Part shown: piece by piece, positions 29,953 through 49,711 of the stretch
Position numbering within the stretch: the stretch's first letter is position 1
How the letters are laid out: each line of letters opens with the position of its first letter
DNA from: an uncultured Prevotellaceae bacterium
GTDB taxonomy: Bacteria; Bacteroidota; Bacteroidia; Bacteroidales; Muribaculaceae
NCBI GenBank assembly: GCA_947167995.1
Contig: CAMVKS010000009.1
Span: 1-64,000 of the forward strand
Length of the DNA stretch: 64,000 bases
Direction: 5' to 3'
Program-made: the position numbers and the translations under genes
Notes under the pieces: model-generated
Database searches by the model: none
Told to the model about the DNA's origin: nothing
What the model saw: only the letters and a program-made list of their open reading frames with translations

Positions 29953-30124
29953 ATTCCTTAATTTATTGTTGATTAATGTCAAAATTGATTATATGAAAAT
30001 AATATCTTCGCAAATTTAATAAAACTGCCCAACCCGACAAAATATTCTTCTAAAAACCTTGCAAGTCACGATTGAATTCATTATTTTTACGGCATTAAAT
30101 ATTAAAACCTCTAACCTACCGAGC

Positions 30125-32029
30125 ATGAAAAGATTTATACTTACAATTCTCACCCTTGCCTGTACAATAAGCACATGGGCATGGAAACCCATCTTCATTG
30201 GCCATCGGGGCAGTTATATGGGAGTGATGAACACCGTTGAAGCCTACAACAACGGTGTGGACCATTATGGTTATCAAGGATTGGAGTGTGACGTGCGCGT
30301 CACTGCCGACGGGTACTATGTGATAAGCCACGATGAGACCACCAATGCTGTGGGCGGAAACCTCACCGTCGCCAATGCCACCTTGGCACAACTGCAAGCC
30401 GAGACCTATACACAGACACGTGGCGGCGTGACCTACACAGGACACATCTGCACCGTCGCCGAGTATCTCGACATCTGCGTCGAGAAAGATGTGATACCTG
30501 TGGTGGAACTAAAGTGGACCACCGGCATCAACAACAACGACATGAGCAACTTCCCCGGGCTGGCAGCTCTTATCGAGGAGAAAGGACTTACTCACAAGGC
30601 CATAATCCTCACGTCGATGCGTAACTCACTTGAATATGTGCGCACCAACTTCCCCGCTCTCAAGTGCCAGTTCCTGTGCAACAGCAACTGGTCGACACAT
30701 TTCGACTGGATTGTGCAATGGGGCTTGATGCCAAGCATCGAGGCTGGCTGCTTAGACAAGTACACCGTGAAGAGATTCCACGACAAAGGTCTTGACGTTG
30801 CCGTATGGACCGTTAATTCACTTGCCAACTACAAACTTTATGGCGAGATGGGTGTGGCAATGATTACCTGCGACTATCTAATGCCCAGTGAAATGCCTGA
30901 GCTTGAAGATATCGACTGGAACTCTATCGTGGAACCACTGGAGCCGCTCGAAGTGGTGGTTGACACATTGTTTTCCTACACGAGGGAGAAAGGGAACTTG
31001 CCTGTAAATTTTCCCTCGGGGCTTGAGGCCGATGGCTCGCCATTCAAATCGGCCCAACAAGCCGCAATCAGTAAAGACGGCATCTTCTATGCCAACAACT
31101 ACACCACAAGCGCTCTCGTGATTCTCAAGCCCGACGGCACCGTGAGCGAAGCTCCCGGCACAAGCAGTCACGGCATCTGCTTCGACACAGCCGGCAACCT
31201 AATCCAGCGCAACGATGGCGTCACCAAGAATCCATGCTCCATTATCATTTACCCAGGAGGTGACATCAATGCAACCCCTGTCGATGTGGAATTTGAACTT
31301 GACGAGGAAGGGCAGACCAACTTCATCAGCGCCATAGGCGATGTGATGAGCGAAGAAGGCGGCTACGTCTACCATTACCAGAACGGCCGATCATATATCT
31401 CGCTCGTCAAGATTGCCAACGGAGAGTTTCAAGGCACCGAGAGCACCGACGCAGTATCGTTTGCCGGCACCACAGCCGGTGTGATATACCCAATAGGCAA
31501 TAATCCTTATCACTTCATCTATCAAGTACGCAATCAAGGCTACAACCTCTACGACGGCATCGATATGGGCAAATACATCCCTGGTTCACTCAATACCACT
31601 CCCCCAAACAGCAACTCGTCGGTGGGAGGAGCCTATTTTGTGCTTGACGACCACGAGATGTTTCTCTACACCAGTGGCAGCAACTACAACGGTGGATTCA
31701 CGATTCGCGACATGAGCGCCGAGGGTACTGCTGTGGCAACCATTCCTCCCATGGGCACTGGGGGCTACTCGGCCAACCCCTCGGTGGGCTCGTTCTTCAG
31801 CGTAGTACCCGAGAAGGGCAAGAGCGTAATTGTGTATGAATACACGATGGGCAATGGCTATGCCGCCTATCGAGTACACACCACCGACTATACCGCCATC
31901 AATCAAATAGATATTGACACCCCTCAACCTCAAGACAACAACTACTACGACCTTATGGGCCGCAAGGTTAATGGCAACATTCCACAAGGAATCTACATCC
32001 ATAATGGCAAGAAGATTGTTGTGAGATGA
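30125..32029 (+). CDS. Secreted glycerophosphodiester phosphodiesterase-domain protein with C-terminal sorting-like tail
   Basis: FIGHRGSYMGVMNTVEAYNNGVDHYGYQGLECDVRVTADGYYVISHDETT; C-terminal NNYYDLMGRKVNGNIPQGIYIHNGKKIVVR. Confidence 0.9.
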   Translation: MKRFILTILTLACTISTWAWKPIFIGHRGSYMGVMNTVEAYNNGVDHYGYQGLECDVRVTADGYYVISHDETTNAVGGNLTVANATLAQLQAETYTQTRGGVTYTGHICTVAEYLDICVEKDVIPVVELKWTTGINNNDMSNFPGLAALIEEKGLTHKAIILTSMRNSLEYVRTNFPALKCQFLCNSNWSTHFDWIVQWGLMPSIEAGCLDKYTVKRFHDKGLDVAVWTVNSLANYKLYGEMGVAMITCDYLMPSEMPELEDIDWNSIVEPLEPLEVVVDTLFSYTREKGNLPVNFPSGLEADGSPFKSAQQAAISKDGIFYANNYTTSALVILKPDGTVSEAPGTSSHGICFDTAGNLIQRNDGVTKNPCSIIIYPGGDINATPVDVEFELDEEGQTNFISAIGDVMSEEGGYVYHYQNGRSYISLVKIANGEFQGTESTDAVSFAGTTAGVIYPIGNNPYHFIYQVRNQGYNLYDGIDMGKYIPGSLNTTPPNSNSSVGGAYFVLDDHEMFLYTSGSNYNGGFTIRDMSAEGTAVATIPPMGTGGYSANPSVGSFFSVVPEKGKSVIVYEYTMGNGYAAYRVHTTDYTAINQIDIDTPQPQDNNYYDLMGRKVNGNIPQGIYIHNGKKIVVR

Positions 32030-36803: not shown

Positions 36804-38789
36804 TCAAGGATGATATTGCACAAATGCCTCGATAGCTTCGTAGCTTGCGAGACCGAGGCGGCTATAAAGCGAGGCAGTGTCCTGATTGCGCTTGAGAGAG
36901 CGTTGCCAGTTAAGATTCTCATCTTCAGGGTCGATGAATGGAGCATCATGAACTTGAGACTGATGTTTCAATATTGCATCGCGCTTATGCTGAAACTCCT
37001 CGGGACTCATTGGCACAGCCATCTCAATGTGAGCAATATCCCAATCACCCCACAATCCACGATACATCCACACACGACAATCTTGCATGAATTCCTCTTC
37101 TTTCAAATCTTCAATTGCGGCAAGAACCACATTGGCCGAAGGTTCGTGAATGCCATAAGGGTCGCTCAAATCATCGGCAAAGAATATCTGGTGAGGCTGG
37201 ATTTTCTCTATCAAAGCTTTTACTGGCAGCACATCGGCTTCGGTTAAACGTCCTTTCCCAAATTGTGTGTCTACATAAAACGGCAATGACAATTCATGAA
37301 TATTTTCCTCCTTTACACCTAAATAGGCACAACTGGTGATTCCTTCGCAAACAAAGATTTCGCCTTTGCAGAAGCGAACCTCATCGATATCGGGGTCACC
37401 TGGAGTCTTATTCTCGAGGCTTTGCTCTATCTTCTCTACTACACCGCGTTGAGCATCATTGTAATAACCTTTACTCTGTGCCACTCGCTTCGAGACCATC
37501 ACATAACGCTTCATGTCCTCGTCGCTCACCATCACATCGCCCGATGTCTCAAACACCACATGAACCTCATGACCTTGTTCCACAAGGCGGCGCAAAGTGC
37601 CTCCCATCGCAAGGACAACATCATCGGGATGGGGACTGAAGGCGAGGACGCGTTTGGGATAAGGATTGGCACGTTCCGGGCGGTAGGTATCGTCGGCATT
37701 GGGCTTGCCACCAGGCCAGCCAGTGATAGTGTGCTGGATATCATTGAATATCTGGATGTTCACATTATATCCTGAGCCATACACTGCTACGAGTTCACTC
37801 AAGCCATAGTCGTTGTAGTCTTTGTTGGTGAGTTTGAGAATTGGTTTCCCTGTCTGTTCGCTAAGCCACACAAGTGCTCTTCGCAACAACGTGCGATTCC
37901 ATTCACACGAAGTCACTTTCCATGGATAGTTTATTCGCGTGAGGCACGAGGCTGCATCAAGGTCAATCACAAGCTTAACATTGTGGTGCATCTGGAGGAA
38001 TGATGCAGGAAATTGGTCAGTGATATTCCCTTCAATAGTATTAAAAACAGCTTTGGCACTACCTTCTCCCCATGCTGTAGTTATTATCTTACTGGCATTG
38101 AGGATATTGCTTATGCCAAGTGTGACCGCAGTCTTGGGCGATTGCTCACACTGATAGCTGTCGGCTATGCGTGTGCGCGTCTCGCCTGAGAGCGAAACGA
38201 GTCGGCACGACGACATACTCGTAGAGCCAGCCTCGTTAAATGCCAATCCTCCGTTCTTGGTCAGCTCGCACACTACAATATCAAGACCACCATATTCATC
38301 TATCTCAGTCTCGTAGACTCGACAAAACCTGAAAACATTCTCTTTAGTTGCATCAGGATTGAAAGTGTGTATATTCTCGGGAGCAATATCAACTTTGTTG
38401 AGGAAACCGTCGCTGAGTCGTTTGAGGGTACTCTGTCCTTCGGCATCGGGTACTCCGAGCCCCAATTCAGTCATATTGAAAACAACGACGTTATTAAAGC
38501 TCAACTTATCGGCAAAGTACATTTTCACGAGTTCTCCATAAACGTCCATTGCGCAACGTCCAGCACCAAGTCCCATCACACAACGTCCTTTCTCGCGCAC
38601 ACATTGCTCGATAGTGTCGGCCACTTCTTGGGCCGCCCAAGCTGCACCTTCAAGTGGTGTCTCTAATACATTTGTTTGAACTTTCTCATATCTCGTTAGT
38701 GATATTAGTTCAACTTCACTATCAGGACAATAGTAACGTCTTGACACTTGTTCAAGCTTTATGTGAGAACTCAAGTCGGTTTTCATCAT
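36804..38789 (-). CDS. NagB-like (glucosamine-6-phosphate deaminase-fold) domain fused to PIG-L/LmbE-like deacetylase
   Basis: N-terminal GLDIVVCELTKNGGLAFNEAGSTS aligns to NagB; C-terminal RVLAFSPHPDDVVLAMGGTLRRLVEQGHEVHVVFET is PIG-L. Confidence 0.9.
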   Translation of the reverse strand: MMKTDLSSHIKLEQVSRRYYCPDSEVELISLTRYEKVQTNVLETPLEGAAWAAQEVADTIEQCVREKGRCVMGLGAGRCAMDVYGELVKMYFADKLSFNNVVVFNMTELGLGVPDAEGQSTLKRLSDGFLNKVDIAPENIHTFNPDATKENVFRFCRVYETEIDEYGGLDIVVCELTKNGGLAFNEAGSTSMSSCRLVSLSGETRTRIADSYQCEQSPKTAVTLGISNILNASKIITTAWGEGSAKAVFNTIEGNITDQFPASFLQMHHNVKLVIDLDAASCLTRINYPWKVTSCEWNRTLLRRALVWLSEQTGKPILKLTNKDYNDYGLSELVAVYGSGYNVNIQIFNDIQHTITGWPGGKPNADDTYRPERANPYPKRVLAFSPHPDDVVLAMGGTLRRLVEQGHEVHVVFETSGDVMVSDEDMKRYVMVSKRVAQSKGYYNDAQRGVVEKIEQSLENKTPGDPDIDEVRFCKGEIFVCEGITSCAYLGVKEENIHELSLPFYVDTQFGKGRLTEADVLPVKALIEKIQPHQIFFADDLSDPYGIHEPSANVVLAAIEDLKEEEFMQDCRVWMYRGLWGDWDIAHIEMAVPMSPEEFQHKRDAILKHQSQVHDAPFIDPEDENLNWQRSLKRNQDTASLYSRLGLASYEAIEAFVQYHP

Positions 38790-41589: not shown

Positions 41590-42720
41590 ATGAGATACTT
41601 TATTATAGCTGGCGAGGCATCGGGCGATATTCATGGCAGTGCACTCATCGATGCCATTAAAGATAATGACCAAGAGGCAAGCTTCGATTTCCTTGGTGGT
41701 GACCTCATGGCACGAAGTGCAGGGCATGACCCACTGATACACTACCGAGACATGGCTTTCATGGGATTTATAGAGGTAATGAAGCACTTGGGCAGCATCT
41801 TGGGCTTCATGAAACGGGCAAAGCAAGCCATGACTGCCAATCGTCCCGATGCATTGATACTAATAGACTATCCGTCATTTAACCTCAAGATGGCAAAATG
41901 GGCTAAGGGACAAGGAATTCCTGTGTTCTATTTCATCTCTCCCAAGGTGTGGGCATGGAAGGAGTGGCGCGTAAAAGACATCAAGCGATATGTTGACCGC
42001 ATGTTTTCAATCCTTCCATTTGAGACCGAGTTCTACCGCAATCACGGATATGAGATAGAATATGTGGGCAACCCCACAGTGAAAGAGGTTGCAACAGCCC
42101 TTCGGGACATGCGCTGCGACAACGATTTTAGACAGGAAAACCGGCTCCATCCCACCAAACCCATCATCGCCATGCTACCTGGTTCACGCCTTAAAGAGAT
42201 TCGCGACAACCTGCCCACCATGATTGCGGCTGCCCAGCTTCACAACAACTGCCAGATGGTGATTGCCGGAGCTCCAAGCATTGACGACGAAGTTTATTCG
42301 CTCGCAATAAAGGGCACAAAAATACCAGTGCTGCGTGACCAGACTTTTGAACTGGTGCATCACTCACGTGTTGCACTCGTCACCTCGGGGACCGCAACAC
42401 TCGAGACAGCACTGCTTGGAACTCCACAGGTGGCATGCTATCGCATGAATGGCAGCAAACGCGTGTACTGGTTCTACAGCAAACTCATTAAGGGCAAATA
42501 TGTGACCTTACCGAACCTTATAGCCGACGCTCCCATTATTCCCGAATTGCTCTTGCACTATTGCAGTATAGACAATGTTGATGAACACCTCACACAACTA
42601 CTCAACGACAGTGACCAACGTCGCACAATGCTTGAAGGATATAAGAAACTGGCACAGATTCTCACGACCAACGACTGCGCCACCAATACTGCCAAACGCA
42701 TAATTGAGCAATTGACATGA
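41590..42720 (+). CDS. lpxB: Lipid-A-disaccharide synthase
   Basis: IIAGEASGDIHGSALI, MGFIEVMKHL, FYFISPKVWAWKEWRVKDIKRYVDRMFSILPFE, LPGSRLKEI. Confidence 0.97.
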   Translation: MRYFIIAGEASGDIHGSALIDAIKDNDQEASFDFLGGDLMARSAGHDPLIHYRDMAFMGFIEVMKHLGSILGFMKRAKQAMTANRPDALILIDYPSFNLKMAKWAKGQGIPVFYFISPKVWAWKEWRVKDIKRYVDRMFSILPFETEFYRNHGYEIEYVGNPTVKEVATALRDMRCDNDFRQENRLHPTKPIIAMLPGSRLKEIRDNLPTMIAAAQLHNNCQMVIAGAPSIDDEVYSLAIKGTKIPVLRDQTFELVHHSRVALVTSGTATLETALLGTPQVACYRMNGSKRVYWFYSKLIKGKYVTLPNLIADAPIIPELLLHYCSIDNVDEHLTQLLNDSDQRRTMLEGYKKLAQILTTNDCATNTAKRIIEQLT

Positions 42721-43814
42721 AAAACACACTCGATGAGATAAGAGCTTTCCTTGAAAAGGAGATTGTGCCACGATATGACTCGTTTGACGCAGGGCACCGC
42801 CGTGACCACGCGCATTATGTGATGCAAGAGAGCCTTAACCTGGCTCAGTTCTACCCTACCGTGCGATGCGATATTCTACTCGTGGCTGCCGCCTATCACG
42901 ATTTGGGCCTTGAGGTGGGACGCAAAGTGCACCACACTGAGAGCGCGCGCATCATTCGTGAGGACCAGCGACTCATGCAGTGGTTCACACCTGAGGAAAT
43001 CGAGATCATAGCACAGGCCGCCGAAGATCATCGCGCGTCGAGCGACAACACCCCACGCTCCATCTACGGCCGCATAGTTGCCGAAGCCGACCGGCAAATT
43101 GATGGCGACACCATAATCAGACGCACCATCCAGTTCTCGTTCAAGCACTATCCAAGCCTTGACAAGAAAGAGAACTACAAGCGACTTATCGAACATATGG
43201 CAGAGAAATATGACGAAGGCGGCTACCTGAAATTGTGGATTCCTGAGTCGAACAACGCCAAGAGGTTGCAGGAATTCAGGCAGTTGCTTCATCAACCCGA
43301 GGCTTTGAGGAAAAAATTTGACAAGATATATGACAAACTAATAACACAAAATGACATGACAACAATATTAAAACCAGGCATCCCAGTGGCGCTGTGCAGC
43401 GACCATGCCGGATATGCCACCAAGCAAGCAGTGATTGAATATCTCAAGAAAAACAACATTGAGTATAAAGACTTTGGAACCTATAGCGAGGAAAGCTGCG
43501 ACTACCCCGACTTTGCCCACCCTTGCGCGCTTGCGGTCGAGTGCGGCGAGTGCTATCCAGGCATCGCCGTGTGCGGCAGCGGAGAGGGCATTAACATCAC
43601 TCTCAACAAGCACCAGGGCATCCGCTCTGCACTGTGCTGGATTCCAGAGGTCGCCCGCCTTGCTCGCCAGCACAACGATGCCAATGTGCTTGCTATGCCG
43701 GGACGCTTTGTGACTAATGAGGAGGCTCTTGAAATGGTAAAAACCTTCCTATCAACACCTTTTGAGGGTGGTCGCCATCAACGTCGCGTAGAGAAGATTC
43801 CTGTTGGGAATTGA
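42717..43814 (+). CDS. Fusion: N-terminal HD-domain phosphohydrolase and C-terminal ribose-5-phosphate isomerase B
   Basis: HD: GHRRDHAHYVMQESL...AAAYHDLGLE; RpiB: VALCSDHAGYATKQAV...AVCGSGEGINITLNKHQGIRSALC; continuous frame, ATGA overlap with lpxB. Confidence 0.9.
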   Translation: MKNTLDEIRAFLEKEIVPRYDSFDAGHRRDHAHYVMQESLNLAQFYPTVRCDILLVAAAYHDLGLEVGRKVHHTESARIIREDQRLMQWFTPEEIEIIAQAAEDHRASSDNTPRSIYGRIVAEADRQIDGDTIIRRTIQFSFKHYPSLDKKENYKRLIEHMAEKYDEGGYLKLWIPESNNAKRLQEFRQLLHQPEALRKKFDKIYDKLITQNDMTTILKPGIPVALCSDHAGYATKQAVIEYLKKNNIEYKDFGTYSEESCDYPDFAHPCALAVECGECYPGIAVCGSGEGINITLNKHQGIRSALCWIPEVARLARQHNDANVLAMPGRFVTNEEALEMVKTFLSTPFEGGRHQRRVEKIPVGN

Positions 43815-44881: not shown

Positions 44882-46840
44882 ATGAGAAACAATCTAATTC
44901 TATTTATAGCACTATCTTTAACCGCAATCAGTGCACAAGCATCGACATATTATGGGTTTAAAATTGGTGGCGTGTCGGTAAACAGCGACAACTATACCAA
45001 TGTGAGAGGTTCAAACATCAAGGCAAACGACACAAGCCAGCCTTACTCGGTGGTCTATGATCCGTCGACCAAGACCGTGACCCTCAACAATGTAAAAATA
45101 GAGCGAACGGGCAACGACAACCGGTGCATCTACAATGAGAGTTGCGACGGGTTAACGGTATATTTCAGCACTGCCAACAGCTATCTCAGTTCCACAACAT
45201 GTGCCCCAATTAGGTTAGAAGCCAATACCACTTTCACTTGCGAGGCACTGGTGCAGGTGAGCGTTCAAGGTACTGATGGTGACGCCAATTGTCTCTATGC
45301 CACAAGTGGTGCTACTGTCACTTTCGACCATGCCACTTTTAGGATGTATCTTAATGGAAATTCTAATCCCGCAATATCCAGCAGCAGTACCACCAACGAG
45401 AAAATCGTCTTTCACCACTCGCGCGTTTATGTTTATAGCGCAGGCGGCAGTGCCTTGTCACGCTTTTCGAGTGTGACATGTGACGGCTCGGCACTACTGC
45501 TGCGCACGGGCAGCGAAACGGCATGTGCCATGTACTATGTGAATTTATTCACGTTGACCAACTATCCCACCATGACTATTGGTTATGGCGTCAACCCAAT
45601 TACCAGTTTCACAAACTACACCATCTTTGGCGTGGCGACCTTCAGCAACACCCAAAAGACCTTTGTCAACGCGGGCAACGATGTGCTGCCAGGCAGAGAC
45701 ATCATCATTTCACAGCGAATTCCCGTCGATGAGTCACACTTTCCCGACGCTACCTTCCGCTCATGGGTAACCGAGAAATATGGCTCAACCCTTGAGACCT
45801 ATGATATTTTTGAAAGGCGCACAATCAATGTTGAGACATCAGACAGTAAAGCCTTGAAGAATGTGGAGGACTGGACTGGAATAGGTTATTTCCATTGCTT
45901 CCGTCGATTGTGGGACCAGGGAGGAAAGACAAGAATCCTGCGATTGGCTTCTAATAAGGAGTTTTATCACTTGAAGTGCTATGACAATCCCGTGGGCATC
46001 TCATGGGCTGGACTGGCATCTACTCTTAAACCAGTGCCAAGCGGAAAAGAGGGCTTGATTGAAGCTTTCAACGCCACAGCTGCCGAGCGCAACCCGCTCC
46101 CGACCCGCTCTCAGCTGGGTGTCATAAAAAGTAATGGATTTGATTTTATTGTGAAGAACGGCAACAATACCTATTCACTCAACGCCCTGCAGAACTACTG
46201 GCCCATAGATTATGACCACTTCCCCGACGACGCGTTCCGCACCTTCCTTTACACTCGTGCCGAGGGATTAGATGCCGTTATCTATGATAGCGAGAATGCA
46301 AAGATCAATGCCTATGACTTAAAAAACATGAATATCGCCGACCTCACGGGTATTGAGGGTCTCACAAATATCACGCATTTGTATTGCTACCAAAACCGGC
46401 TCTCAACCTTAAATATTTCTAAAAACACCAAATTGATTTTGCTGTATTGCTACTGGAACAGGATCAAGAGTGACGGTTGGGACCATTTCATTGCCACGGC
46501 ACCCACCATGAGCAACAGGCTTGATGTGTATTGCTACTATCCCTCAAGCATGGAGAACAACGACCTACCCACCTACCAGCAAGTGGCTCAGGCCAAAGCC
46601 AAGAACATCCATTTCTATCATTGGACCAACTACCGCTGGGAAGAAATGAGCGATATTGCGCCAATCGTTCCTGGCGACGTGAACGGTGATGGAGTGGTGA
46701 CAAGTGCCGATATTACAGCACTATATGATTTCTTGCTTAACAACGACACCACACACATCGTCAATGGAGATCAGACTGGCGATGGCGACATCACAGCTGC
46801 CGACATCACAGCAGTTTATGGTGTGTTATTAACCTCATAA
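44882..46840 (+). CDS. Secreted protein: carbohydrate-binding/beta-helix-like module, LRR region, C-terminal dockerin-like repeats
   Basis: Signal peptide; LRR LTGIEGLTNITHLYCYQNRLSTLNISKNTKLILLYCYWNRI; GDVNGDGVVTSADITALYDFLLNN...GDQTGDGDITAADITAVYGVLL. Confidence 0.87.
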   Translation: MRNNLILFIALSLTAISAQASTYYGFKIGGVSVNSDNYTNVRGSNIKANDTSQPYSVVYDPSTKTVTLNNVKIERTGNDNRCIYNESCDGLTVYFSTANSYLSSTTCAPIRLEANTTFTCEALVQVSVQGTDGDANCLYATSGATVTFDHATFRMYLNGNSNPAISSSSTTNEKIVFHHSRVYVYSAGGSALSRFSSVTCDGSALLLRTGSETACAMYYVNLFTLTNYPTMTIGYGVNPITSFTNYTIFGVATFSNTQKTFVNAGNDVLPGRDIIISQRIPVDESHFPDATFRSWVTEKYGSTLETYDIFERRTINVETSDSKALKNVEDWTGIGYFHCFRRLWDQGGKTRILRLASNKEFYHLKCYDNPVGISWAGLASTLKPVPSGKEGLIEAFNATAAERNPLPTRSQLGVIKSNGFDFIVKNGNNTYSLNALQNYWPIDYDHFPDDAFRTFLYTRAEGLDAVIYDSENAKINAYDLKNMNIADLTGIEGLTNITHLYCYQNRLSTLNISKNTKLILLYCYWNRIKSDGWDHFIATAPTMSNRLDVYCYYPSSMENNDLPTYQQVAQAKAKNIHFYHWTNYRWEEMSDIAPIVPGDVNGDGVVTSADITALYDFLLNNDTTHIVNGDQTGDGDITAADITAVYGVLLTS

Positions 46841-46885: not shown

Positions 46886-49711
46886 ATGAAAAAAATATTT
46901 TTATTACTGGTGTTCTTCACCATTGCTATCGTGGCAAGTGCAGAGCCAGCCAATCCAACTCCCATCACCGTGACACAAGCTGACGGAACAACGTTACAAC
47001 TATGCCTTGTGGGAGACGAGTTTTACCATTTCAACACAACAATCGACGGCTACACCATCCTCAATGTTGATGGCCGTTGGGAGTATGCCAAGAAAAATGG
47101 TGAGTTATTAGTGTCGTCAGGTATCATGGCTCACAATCCTCAAGACCGTAATGCTCAGGAATTACTGTTGTTGGAGTCAATGCCTAAATGTCTTGTAGAT
47201 AAAAAGGAGACGAATCATGCCCACAAGGCCCGTCTTGACCGCGACACTAAGAACCAGAGCAATGAGCCTGTTGTTGATTACAGCACCTTCCGTGGCCTCA
47301 TCATTCTTATTAACTACAACGATAAGCAATTCCAGATGAGCAATGCCAACAGCTTCTACAACCAGCTCTGCAACACTCACAACTACACTGGTTTCTACCA
47401 CCAGGGACAATTTCAACAGTGTACAGGCAGCGTGCGAGATTACTACTACGACAACTCAATGGGTCAATTCGACCCAGATTTTGACGTTGTGGGCCCCGTT
47501 ACCCTTGACTATTCGTGCTATAAGGGTCACGAAAAATCGCGCGAGATTTTCCAGGCCGCGATGGACGCTGTTGATGGCCAGGTCGACTTCTCGCAATATG
47601 ATGCTGACAATGACGGCGAAATCGACATGGTGTTCTTTATGGTGGCAGGCTACTCGTCGAGCTACAGCGGCAACAACAGCGGTTACCTGTGGCCTCACAT
47701 GAGCTACCTATATGGCTACAACGGCAGTTACTATTATTATCTGCAATATGACGGCAAGTACATGGGGCGCTATGCCTCGTCGTGCGAGATATATGGTTGG
47801 GAGAGTTACGGCTACACTATGCCTAACGCCATTGGCACCATTTGCCATGAGTTTGGCCATGTGCTGGGATTGCCCGACCTCTATGATACCGACTATGGTC
47901 AAAGCGGAGGTCAGAGCCTCCACCCCGATGGCTGGGATGTGATGGCTGGAGGAAGCCACAACAACTACGGTCGCACACCAGTTGGTTATAGCCTTTGGGA
48001 ACGCTGGGAACTCGGTTTCACTTCTAAGCCCCAAGAACTTACGCCTGGCACTAGGACTTTGAGCCCTGTAAATTCGAGCAACACTGGTTTGATGATGTCA
48101 TCGCCAAATCCTCAGGAATATTTCCTCTTTGAGGACCGACAGGCCAACAAATGGGACTCGGCTCTTCCTGGTCATGGATTACTTGTGACCCGAGTAGATC
48201 GCAGCAACCAGTCGGTTTGGGACCAGAATGATGTTAACTGCAACCCTCAGCGCAATTATTATGAGCTCGTGAGGGCTTCGGGCACCAGCGACAGCCAAGT
48301 GCCATTCCCTGGCAACAGCAACGTCACTGTGCTCAACTCTGTCACCGAACCAGCTCTCCTTACCTGGGACGGTCAATCGTGCAACTTTGGCCTCTCGGGA
48401 ATTACCGAAACTGGCGGCAACATCACTTTCAATGTGGTTGCTGAGGTTGAGCCCAGCACAATCGTTGAGGACTTTGAGTCGATGCCTATTTCGACCGTCG
48501 AGAATCCTGCCGACGTGCTCGGAAACTTCGCCACATGGACCTTCCCCAAAGCATCGGTAGTGGAAGCAAATGGCGGCAAAGCCGCAGGCCTTCAGTCTCC
48601 TGGTGGTGTTTTCATGACAAGCGACATCAACGTCAAGATGGTAAAGATTACGATGCAGGCTACAAACCAATCTACCACCACCTCTAAGGTGCAGCTGCAA
48701 TATTCATTTGATGAAGGCGCGACATGGACCACCGTAGGCACCGAAAACATATCCGCGTCGAGCTCTGAGCAGCTGCAATGGCTACTTAACGACATCAATC
48801 AGCCCGTGAGATTCAGGATAATGCAGACTTCAGGCGCCAAGAACAAGCTGCTCCTTATCGACGATATCACTATCACATATACCGAGGCACCAACTTATGA
48901 CCTGAAAATTGCTGATACACAGGTCGATGGTGCTACCATAGGCAACCTTGCCCAAATTGATGGCGTGGAAGGACTAGTGCAGTACCTGCCCGTCAGCAAC
49001 ATCCTTAAAATAGGCAACGCCACAATCACTGGTGAGGGATGCGTAAATGCAGGCGCAACGCTTTCAGGTCTGAATATTCAGGTTCAAGGCGAGGTGACCC
49101 TGAACACCACCCGAGTCGGCCGTCCAGCCATTATTTTCAACAATAGCGATGACGCTATCGTGCAAGGCGTTTCATCGGGGGATGATTATGCAAAACTAAA
49201 CATCAATGTTCCTGCTGGAAACAATACGACGCCAGTTATTTACTATATTAGCTATTATGGAAACGATGAACATCGTGCGTTCATCAAGGATATCGACATT
49301 CACATGACTGGTACTGCCTATATAGGTTCAGAAAATTGGAACGAATGTCTTACTGTTGAGAATTCAAGTATTATTGCAGACGGTCCTTGGAGTGATTTTT
49401 ACGTCATTAACGATGTGCAGCTCGTTGACTGTTACGTGTCACTTCCCGAAGGTGGTTATTTTAACCGTGGCCAGCTATGTGATGCTCAGGGGCAGGAGTG
49501 GCATGGACCGTTTAAAATACTACGCGCGCAGCAAGTGGTTGCTGGCGATGTGAACGGAGATGGCACGGTGACCAGTGCCGATGTTACTGCGCTCTACAAT
49601 TGGCTGCTTAATAACGACAGCAGTTCTATCGTTAATGGTGACCAAAATGGCGATGGCAACATCACAGCTGGCGATATAACTGTCGTATATAACACCCTGT
49701 TAGGAAATTAA
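46886..49711 (+). CDS. Secreted M6-family metalloprotease with C-terminal module like preceding gene and dockerin-like repeats
   Basis: ICHEFGHVLGLPDLYDTD zinc site (HExxHxxGxxD), QYDADNDGEIDMVFFMV; GDVNGDGTVTSADVTALYNWLLNN...GDQNGDGNITAGDITVVYNTLLGN. Confidence 0.92.
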   Translation: MKKIFLLLVFFTIAIVASAEPANPTPITVTQADGTTLQLCLVGDEFYHFNTTIDGYTILNVDGRWEYAKKNGELLVSSGIMAHNPQDRNAQELLLLESMPKCLVDKKETNHAHKARLDRDTKNQSNEPVVDYSTFRGLIILINYNDKQFQMSNANSFYNQLCNTHNYTGFYHQGQFQQCTGSVRDYYYDNSMGQFDPDFDVVGPVTLDYSCYKGHEKSREIFQAAMDAVDGQVDFSQYDADNDGEIDMVFFMVAGYSSSYSGNNSGYLWPHMSYLYGYNGSYYYYLQYDGKYMGRYASSCEIYGWESYGYTMPNAIGTICHEFGHVLGLPDLYDTDYGQSGGQSLHPDGWDVMAGGSHNNYGRTPVGYSLWERWELGFTSKPQELTPGTRTLSPVNSSNTGLMMSSPNPQEYFLFEDRQANKWDSALPGHGLLVTRVDRSNQSVWDQNDVNCNPQRNYYELVRASGTSDSQVPFPGNSNVTVLNSVTEPALLTWDGQSCNFGLSGITETGGNITFNVVAEVEPSTIVEDFESMPISTVENPADVLGNFATWTFPKASVVEANGGKAAGLQSPGGVFMTSDINVKMVKITMQATNQSTTTSKVQLQYSFDEGATWTTVGTENISASSSEQLQWLLNDINQPVRFRIMQTSGAKNKLLLIDDITITYTEAPTYDLKIADTQVDGATIGNLAQIDGVEGLVQYLPVSNILKIGNATITGEGCVNAGATLSGLNIQVQGEVTLNTTRVGRPAIIFNNSDDAIVQGVSSGDDYAKLNINVPAGNNTTPVIYYISYYGNDEHRAFIKDIDIHMTGTAYIGSENWNECLTVENSSIIADGPWSDFYVINDVQLVDCYVSLPEGGYFNRGQLCDAQGQEWHGPFKILRAQQVVAGDVNGDGTVTSADVTALYNWLLNNDSSSIVNGDQNGDGNITAGDITVVYNTLLGN

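What the first reader, a model, noticed from the sequence alone, without database searches (positions are those of the whole stretch)
36804..38789. Degenerate NagB-like domain fused to an intact PIG-L deacetylase
Aligning by eye to E. coli NagB: GxGxDGHIAFNEP becomes ELTKNGGLAFNEA (catalytic D141 to N, H143 to G), FNMDEYVGLP becomes FNMTELGLGVP (D72 to T), and the phosphate loop LPTGGTP becomes LGAGRCA. The C-terminal PIG-L/LmbE domain keeps AFSPHPDD. This suggests a pseudoenzyme sugar-phosphate-binding domain controlling or targeting a zinc deacetylase. Automated annotation would probably call it glucosamine-6-phosphate deaminase, which may be wrong.
Basis: partly seen in the sequence, partly recalled or inferred. 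Interest (0 to 1): 0.6.

Follow-up and report, generated by a model that had tools for sequence, protein, structure and literature searches.

The report
Two-step sugar enzyme losing its parts
This gene descends from a two-in-one enzyme that probably removed first the acetyl group and then the amino group from a cell-wall/chitin sugar; its second half is now dead because a separate enzyme does that step, and in this rumen genus the first half is changing too.

Summary
ORF 36804-38789(-), 661 aa, is a NagB-like domain fused to a PIG-L domain. It belongs to a known family, NCBIfam NF002557/PRK02122 (767 bits, cut-off 384). The deaminase residues are gone: D72→T, H143→G, K208→S, with a broken phosphate loop. 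D141→N means little, because functional relatives lack that Asp.

The loss is not peculiar to this genome. In 250 sequences the ancestral Bacteroidota form has both active sites. The deaminase site was lost about four times, and 38 of 39 genomes with a changed site carry a separate NagB (31/32 with D72 and H143 both lost, against 7/35 intact). Some Muribaculaceae have dropped the domain and keep a nagB–PIG-L gene pair.

The PIG-L half stays invariant elsewhere. Its gene alternates with nagA in one genus (21 fusion only, 11 nagA only, 0 both; about 5 switches). I infer that PIG-L is a NagA-like GlcNAc-6-P deacetylase.

'Intact PIG-L' is wrong here. In the window's genus the conserved oxyanion His is usually Tyr/Phe/Asn, a few members lose zinc ligands, nagA is always present, and PIG-L diverges as fast as or faster than the dead NagB half. 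Purifying selection shows the protein is still used.

The parts
36804..38789 (-). PRK02122-type NagB-PIG-L fusion gene, 661 aa, including stop codon
   Evidence: ORF; NF002557 766.8 bits, cut-off 384; AlphaFold2 mean pLDDT 90.3
37941..38669 (-). NagB-like domain, residues 41-283; NagB fold kept, deaminase site lost
   Evidence: Pfam PF01182; Foldseek to E. coli NagB 1dea TMt 0.86 and B. subtilis NagB 2bkv TMt 0.92
38550..38570 (-). Former phosphate loop, LGAGRCA (residues 74-80) in place of LPTGGTP
   Evidence: alignment with E. coli NagB
38469..38471 (-). Thr107 at the position of catalytic D72
38253..38255 (-). Asn179 at the position of D141 (not diagnostic: functional relatives also lack Asp here)
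38247..38249 (-). Gly181 at the position of catalytic H143
38058..38060 (-). Ser244 at the position of phosphate-binding K208; Ser in 59 of 61 sequences of the genus
37656..37940 (-). Family-specific connecting region, residues 284-378; highly conserved (ITGWPGGKPNADD) and kept where the NagB domain is deleted
36990..37655 (-). PIG-L/LmbE zinc deacetylase-like domain, residues 379-600
   Evidence: Pfam PF02585; Foldseek to diacetylchitobiose deacetylase 8bgo, E 7e-10
37620..37631 (-). HPDD zinc/general-base motif (residues 387-390), kept
37155..37157 (-). Tyr545 in place of the otherwise near-invariant second-shell His (DPHGTH to DPYGIH)
37146..37148 (-). His548, third zinc ligand by homology, kept

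Best explanation
The family began as a bifunctional amino-sugar catabolic enzyme: the PIG-L half takes the acetyl group off GlcNAc-6-phosphate (the NagA step) and the NagB half turns the resulting GlcN-6-phosphate into fructose-6-phosphate. In a Bacteroidales clade that has a separate intact NagB, the fused NagB half became redundant and lost its catalytic residues, leaving the protein as a PIG-L deacetylase with a dead partner domain. In the window's genus (Sodaliphilus, Muribaculaceae) a conventional nagA is also present. There the PIG-L half has lost its oxyanion histidine in most members and evolves faster than before, while the whole protein stays under purifying selection. The window protein is therefore best read as a deaminase-dead NagB-PIG-L protein with a zinc site that may still bind metal and a deacetylase activity that is probably weakened or changed. 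Shown by computation: fold, residue losses, their distribution, co-occurrence and selection. Inferred: substrate identity and present activity.
For: Residue losses. Ancestral form with both sites intact across the phylum: 83 sequences have D72/H143/K208 plus HDDHH. Separate NagB in 31/32 genomes with the site lost versus 7/35 with it intact (Fisher 4e-11, not corrected for descent); at least 3 independent losses, 4 on the best tree, all with a separate NagB. The dead fusion lies next to an intact nagB in 19 of those 32. Split nagB + PIG-L gene pairs with the NagB domain deleted (families confirmed). Intact fusions lie inside chitin loci with SusD, GH18 and GH20, the locus type of the F. johnsoniae chitin locus, whose 'NagB' could not be expressed by its authors (PMC5127042), and beside MurQ or MurQ, NamZ and GH20. 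nagA and the fusion alternate in genus g185, 21 fusion only/11 nagA only/0 both/1 neither, with about 5 switches on an rpoB tree. In 80 Muribaculaceae genomes 65/66 with NagB have the fusion or nagA, against 4/14 without NagB. In the window's genus all 48 genomes have nagA and 45 also have the fusion. NagB/PIG-L divergence ratio is 0.91 with the site intact, 1.72 with the site lost, and 0.63-0.97 in the window's genus. Pairwise dN/dS in the window subclade is 0.03 for NagB and 0.05 for PIG-L.
Against: Substrate and activity are untested. nagA and the fusion co-occur in 12/76 order and 21/77 phylum genomes. G604 has a nagA about 80 bp from an intact fusion on the same strand, where PIG-L would be redundant. 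Over the family outside the genus, presence of nagA and of the fusion is not negatively associated (18 both, 68 fusion only, 18 nagA only, 73 neither; p 0.85) until NagB presence is taken into account. The ten 'neither' genomes tested for NagB were chosen by me. Fifteen of 24 order genomes with NagB but no fusion also lack nagA, so NagB does not strictly need a partner. Other genera with nagA plus fusion keep an intact PIG-L site (L160, L162, L246), so nagA presence alone does not explain the relaxation.
Confidence: 0.62

Rival explanations
1. The dead NagB domain is a sugar-phosphate sensor that switches or targets the attached deacetylase.
For: In the window's genus the NagB-like half is as constrained as PIG-L or more so. 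Former pocket sites settle on common residues: Ser at K208 in 59/61, Glu at E148 in 59/61, Arg/Lys in the loop in 59/61. Pocket entropy is 1.05 bits, against 1.56 in sister genera of similar divergence.
Against: Pocket sites are no more conserved than random sites of the same domain (fraction 0.52), and in sister genera they are hypervariable (0.92-0.996). Several genera delete the domain and keep PIG-L. No ligand is known.
Confidence: 0.17
2. In this genus both halves are dead: a two-domain pseudoenzyme kept for a non-catalytic role, such as a scaffold or partner of NagB.
For: The oxyanion His is lost in most members and zinc ligands in a few (L028, L038, L052, L058, L073, L265), under purifying selection; nagA and nagB are both present.
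Against: Zinc ligands and the general-base Asp are kept in 55 of 61 members, the window's among them. A Tyr near the metal could still support catalysis (own inference). Three genomes of the genus show no fusion gene, so it is dispensable.
Confidence: 0.15
3. PIG-L acts on another amino sugar (free GlcNAc, chitobiose, a bacillithiol precursor), and its link with nagA is indirect.
For: The closest solved PIG-L structures are diacetylchitobiose deacetylases.
Against: Ancestral fusion to a GlcN-6-P deaminase, the MurQ neighbour that yields GlcNAc-6-P, and replacement by nagA within one genus point to GlcNAc-6-P. The match to BshB1 is only 35.7 bits, cut-off 182.5.
Confidence: 0.2
4. The protein is a working GlcN-6-P deaminase with shifted catalytic residues.
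For: NagB fold and the E148 equivalent are kept.
Against: D72, H143 and K208 are all changed with no D/H at equivalent positions; an intact NagB is present in the genome.
Confidence: 0.03

Closest known systems
NCBIfam NF002557 / PRK02122, 'glucosamine-6-phosphate deaminase-like protein'
   Same: Full-length architecture: NagB domain, conserved connecting region, PIG-L domain
   Different: The window copy lacks the NagB catalytic set and the PIG-L second-shell His that the ancestral form has
NagB (GlcN-6-P deaminase; E. coli 1dea, B. subtilis 2bkv)
   Same: Fold; E148 equivalent
   Different: D72, H143 and K208 substituted; below the TIGR00502 cut-off; fused to PIG-L
PIG-L/LmbE deacetylases (diacetylchitobiose deacetylase 8bgo, MshB, BshB)
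   Same: Fold; HxDD and third-His zinc site
   Different: First His of the HxxH motif is Tyr; family-specific connecting and C-terminal regions
NagA (GlcNAc-6-P deacetylase, TIGR00221)
   Same: Proposed reaction of the PIG-L half in the family
   Different: Unrelated amidohydrolase fold; a separate nagA is present in this genome

Membership tests
PRK02122 / NF002557 | Profile score above curated cut-off over the full length | tested here: met
   766.8 bits, cut-off 384, residues 11-660
PRK02122 / NF002557 | NagB + connecting region + PIG-L order | tested here: met
NagB, GlcN-6-P deaminase (TIGR00502) | Score above equivalog cut-off | tested here: not met
   164.9 bits, cut-off 236.9
NagB, GlcN-6-P deaminase (TIGR00502) | Catalytic D72 and H143, phosphate-binding K208 | tested here: not met
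   Thr, Gly, Ser
NagB, GlcN-6-P deaminase (TIGR00502) | Deaminase activity | not testable with these tools
   Needs an assay
PIG-L deacetylase | Zinc ligands H, D, H and general-base D | tested here: met
   H387, D390, H548, D389
PIG-L deacetylase | First His of the HxxH motif (oxyanion side) | tested here: not met
   Tyr545; His in 187/189 relatives outside the genus
PIG-L deacetylase | Deacetylase activity | not testable with these tools
   Needs an assay
NagA-equivalent function (of the family, not homology) | Replaces nagA in otherwise similar genomes | tested here: met
   Genus g185: 21 fusion only, 11 nagA only, 0 both, 1 neither; about 5 switches
NagA-equivalent function (of the family, not homology) | Needed in the window's own genome, i.e. 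no nagA there | tested here: not met
   nagA on contig 21, 239.7 bits

The most novel reading that the evidence does not exclude
In Sodaliphilus the old two-step enzyme has been remade into a largely non-catalytic protein: the NagB-derived pocket is held to a new residue set (Ala/Ser76, Arg/Lys78, Ser/Thr107, Ser244) and senses an amino-sugar phosphate, while the zinc deacetylase half is the one now drifting.
Probability: 0.17. Interest if true: 0.65.

Novelty: new variant of a known kind. Interest (0 to 1): 0.48.

Why it matters
Many Bacteroidota have a GlcN-6-P deaminase but no recognisable GlcNAc-6-P deacetylase: nagA was found in only 12 of 76 Bacteroidales genomes with the fusion. If the PIG-L half of PRK02122 does that step, it fills a gap in the amino-sugar catabolism of major gut and chitin-degrading bacteria, and the claim can be tested with simple complementation. 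The family also gives a clear natural series of enzyme decay: both sites intact, one dead, that half deleted, then the second half changing. Names that end in 'deaminase' would mislead models of this pathway.

Tried and rejected
A simple family-wide test that nagA and the fusion exclude each other failed (p 0.85). It became informative only within one genus and after scoring NagB. A phylogeny-corrected test of 'site lost goes with a separate NagB' had only 3 independent pairs, all agreeing, p 0.25, so the Fisher value should not be taken at face value. I considered that the pocket in the window's genus is newly fixed; entropy shows it is only as conserved as the rest of the domain. Literature searches for PRK02122 and for combinations of PIG-L or LmbE with GlcN-6-P deaminase or NagA returned nothing relevant; a search for MshB with H144 returned nothing. 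P. gingivalis PGN_0606 carries the same product name, 'deaminase-like', as a ChIP-seq site of a hemin regulator; I did not check its sequence. Very long open frames of some relatives (L275, L280, L283) are read-through of high-GC upstream sequence, not extra domains.

Full report
What is there. The minus-strand ORF at 36804-38789 encodes 661 aa. Pfam finds a NagB-type domain and a PIG-L domain, and the whole protein scores 766.8 bits to NCBIfam NF002557/PRK02122, cut-off 384. The AlphaFold2 model is confident (pLDDT 90.3). Its N-terminal part superposes on NagB (TMt 0.86 to 1dea, 0.92 to 2bkv), and its C-terminal part on diacetylchitobiose deacetylase. The gene lies in a same-strand run xth - fusion - dnaE, with gaps of 67 and 228 bases. 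Close relatives keep that order. The best matches are Muribaculaceae metagenome assemblies, and a named Candidatus Sodaliphilus is among the related loci, so I call the genus Sodaliphilus.

The deaminase site. Alignment to E. coli and B. subtilis NagB puts Thr at D72, Gly at H143 and Ser at K208; Glu148 is kept. Asn at D141 is not evidence of decay, because B. subtilis NagB and intact family members also lack Asp there. The genome has a separate NagB with the full motif set, a nagA and another PIG-L protein, which is below the BshB cut-offs.

The family. In 250 sequences, including the window's, three states appear. Eighty-eight have D72 and H143 (and K208), and nearly all of these have the PIG-L residues HDDHH as well. 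Eighty-nine have lost D72 and H143 but keep HDDHH without exception; 12 are partial. The 61 Sodaliphilus sequences have lost the deaminase set and also show change in PIG-L: the first His of HxxH is Tyr, Phe, Asn, Arg or Thr in most, and zinc ligands are replaced in six (L028, L038, L052, L058, L073, L265).

Why the NagB half died. Among 74 Bacteroidales genomes with the fusion, a separate NagB is present in 31 of 32 with D72 and H143 both lost, in 7 of 7 partial, and in 7 of 35 intact. On a tree of the other half of the protein the site was lost about four times, always in genomes with a separate NagB, but too few events exist for a significant corrected test. In 19 of the 32 the dead fusion sits directly beside the intact nagB. 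Several genera carry a split form: an intact nagB followed at once, on the same strand, by a gene made of the connecting region and PIG-L only (L232-L239). L239 differs in that no nagB was seen next to it in the stretch fetched.

What PIG-L probably does. Intact fusions lie in a chitin locus with GH18, GH20 and SusD genes, matching the layout of the F. johnsoniae chitin locus, whose 'NagB' its authors could not express (PMC5127042). They also lie beside MurQ, which makes GlcNAc-6-P, and in a locus with MurQ, NamZ and GH20. nagA was found in 12 of 76 order genomes with the fusion and 21 of 77 phylum genomes with it. In one Muribaculaceae genus of 33 genomes, 21 have the fusion only, 11 nagA only, none both, one neither. 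On an rpoB tree of 25 of them the switch happened about five times. In 80 Muribaculaceae genomes, 65 of 66 with NagB have the fusion or nagA, against 4 of 14 without NagB. I infer a NagA-like role. The counter-evidence is listed under the best explanation, notably co-occurrence in other genera and NagB genomes elsewhere in the order with neither partner.

The window's genus. All 48 genomes have nagA; 45 also have the fusion. The ratio of divergence NagB/PIG-L is 0.91 in intact sequences, 1.72 where only NagB is lost, and 0.63, 0.82 and 0.97 in three Sodaliphilus groups. So PIG-L has sped up relative to the dead NagB half. Pairwise dN/dS is low for both halves in the window subclade (0.03 and 0.05); synonymous sites are near saturation, so the absolute values are rough. 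The former pocket is less variable than in sister genera but no more conserved than the rest of its domain, which leaves a sensor role possible but unproven.

Verdict. This is a known family. The most useful outcome is a testable proposal that the PIG-L half of PRK02122 is the missing GlcNAc-6-P deacetylase of many Bacteroidota. That rests on comparative genomics alone; no activity was tested.

Noticed in passing
42717-43814 (+): 365-aa ORF that fuses an HD domain (N-terminal) to RpiB/LacAB isomerase (residues 224-361, Pfam E 7e-57), next to lpxB-like and dgt-like genes; an uncommon-looking pairing.
   Followed up: partly
44882-46840 and 46886-49711 (+): Two neighbouring large ORFs that each end in a type I dockerin repeat; the second also matches peptidase M6.
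   Followed up: partly
30059-32029 (+): Glycerophosphodiester phosphodiesterase domain (GDPD) followed by a long extra C-terminal region in a 656-aa ORF.
   Followed up: partly
L013 1447-3402 (genome G043): The reverse kind of decay: NagB site intact but PIG-L residues changed (R, A, D, H, R), in a genome that has both a separate NagB and nagA.
   Followed up: no
G604 contig 15, 544008-547108 (-): An intact fusion lies about 80 bases from a conventional nagA on the same strand, which does not fit a simple NagA replacement.
   Followed up: no
L014, L231, L240-L243: A small separate group of fusions with H143 changed to Gln while D72 and K208 are kept; in L014 and L231 an intact nagB is the next gene.
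   Followed up: no
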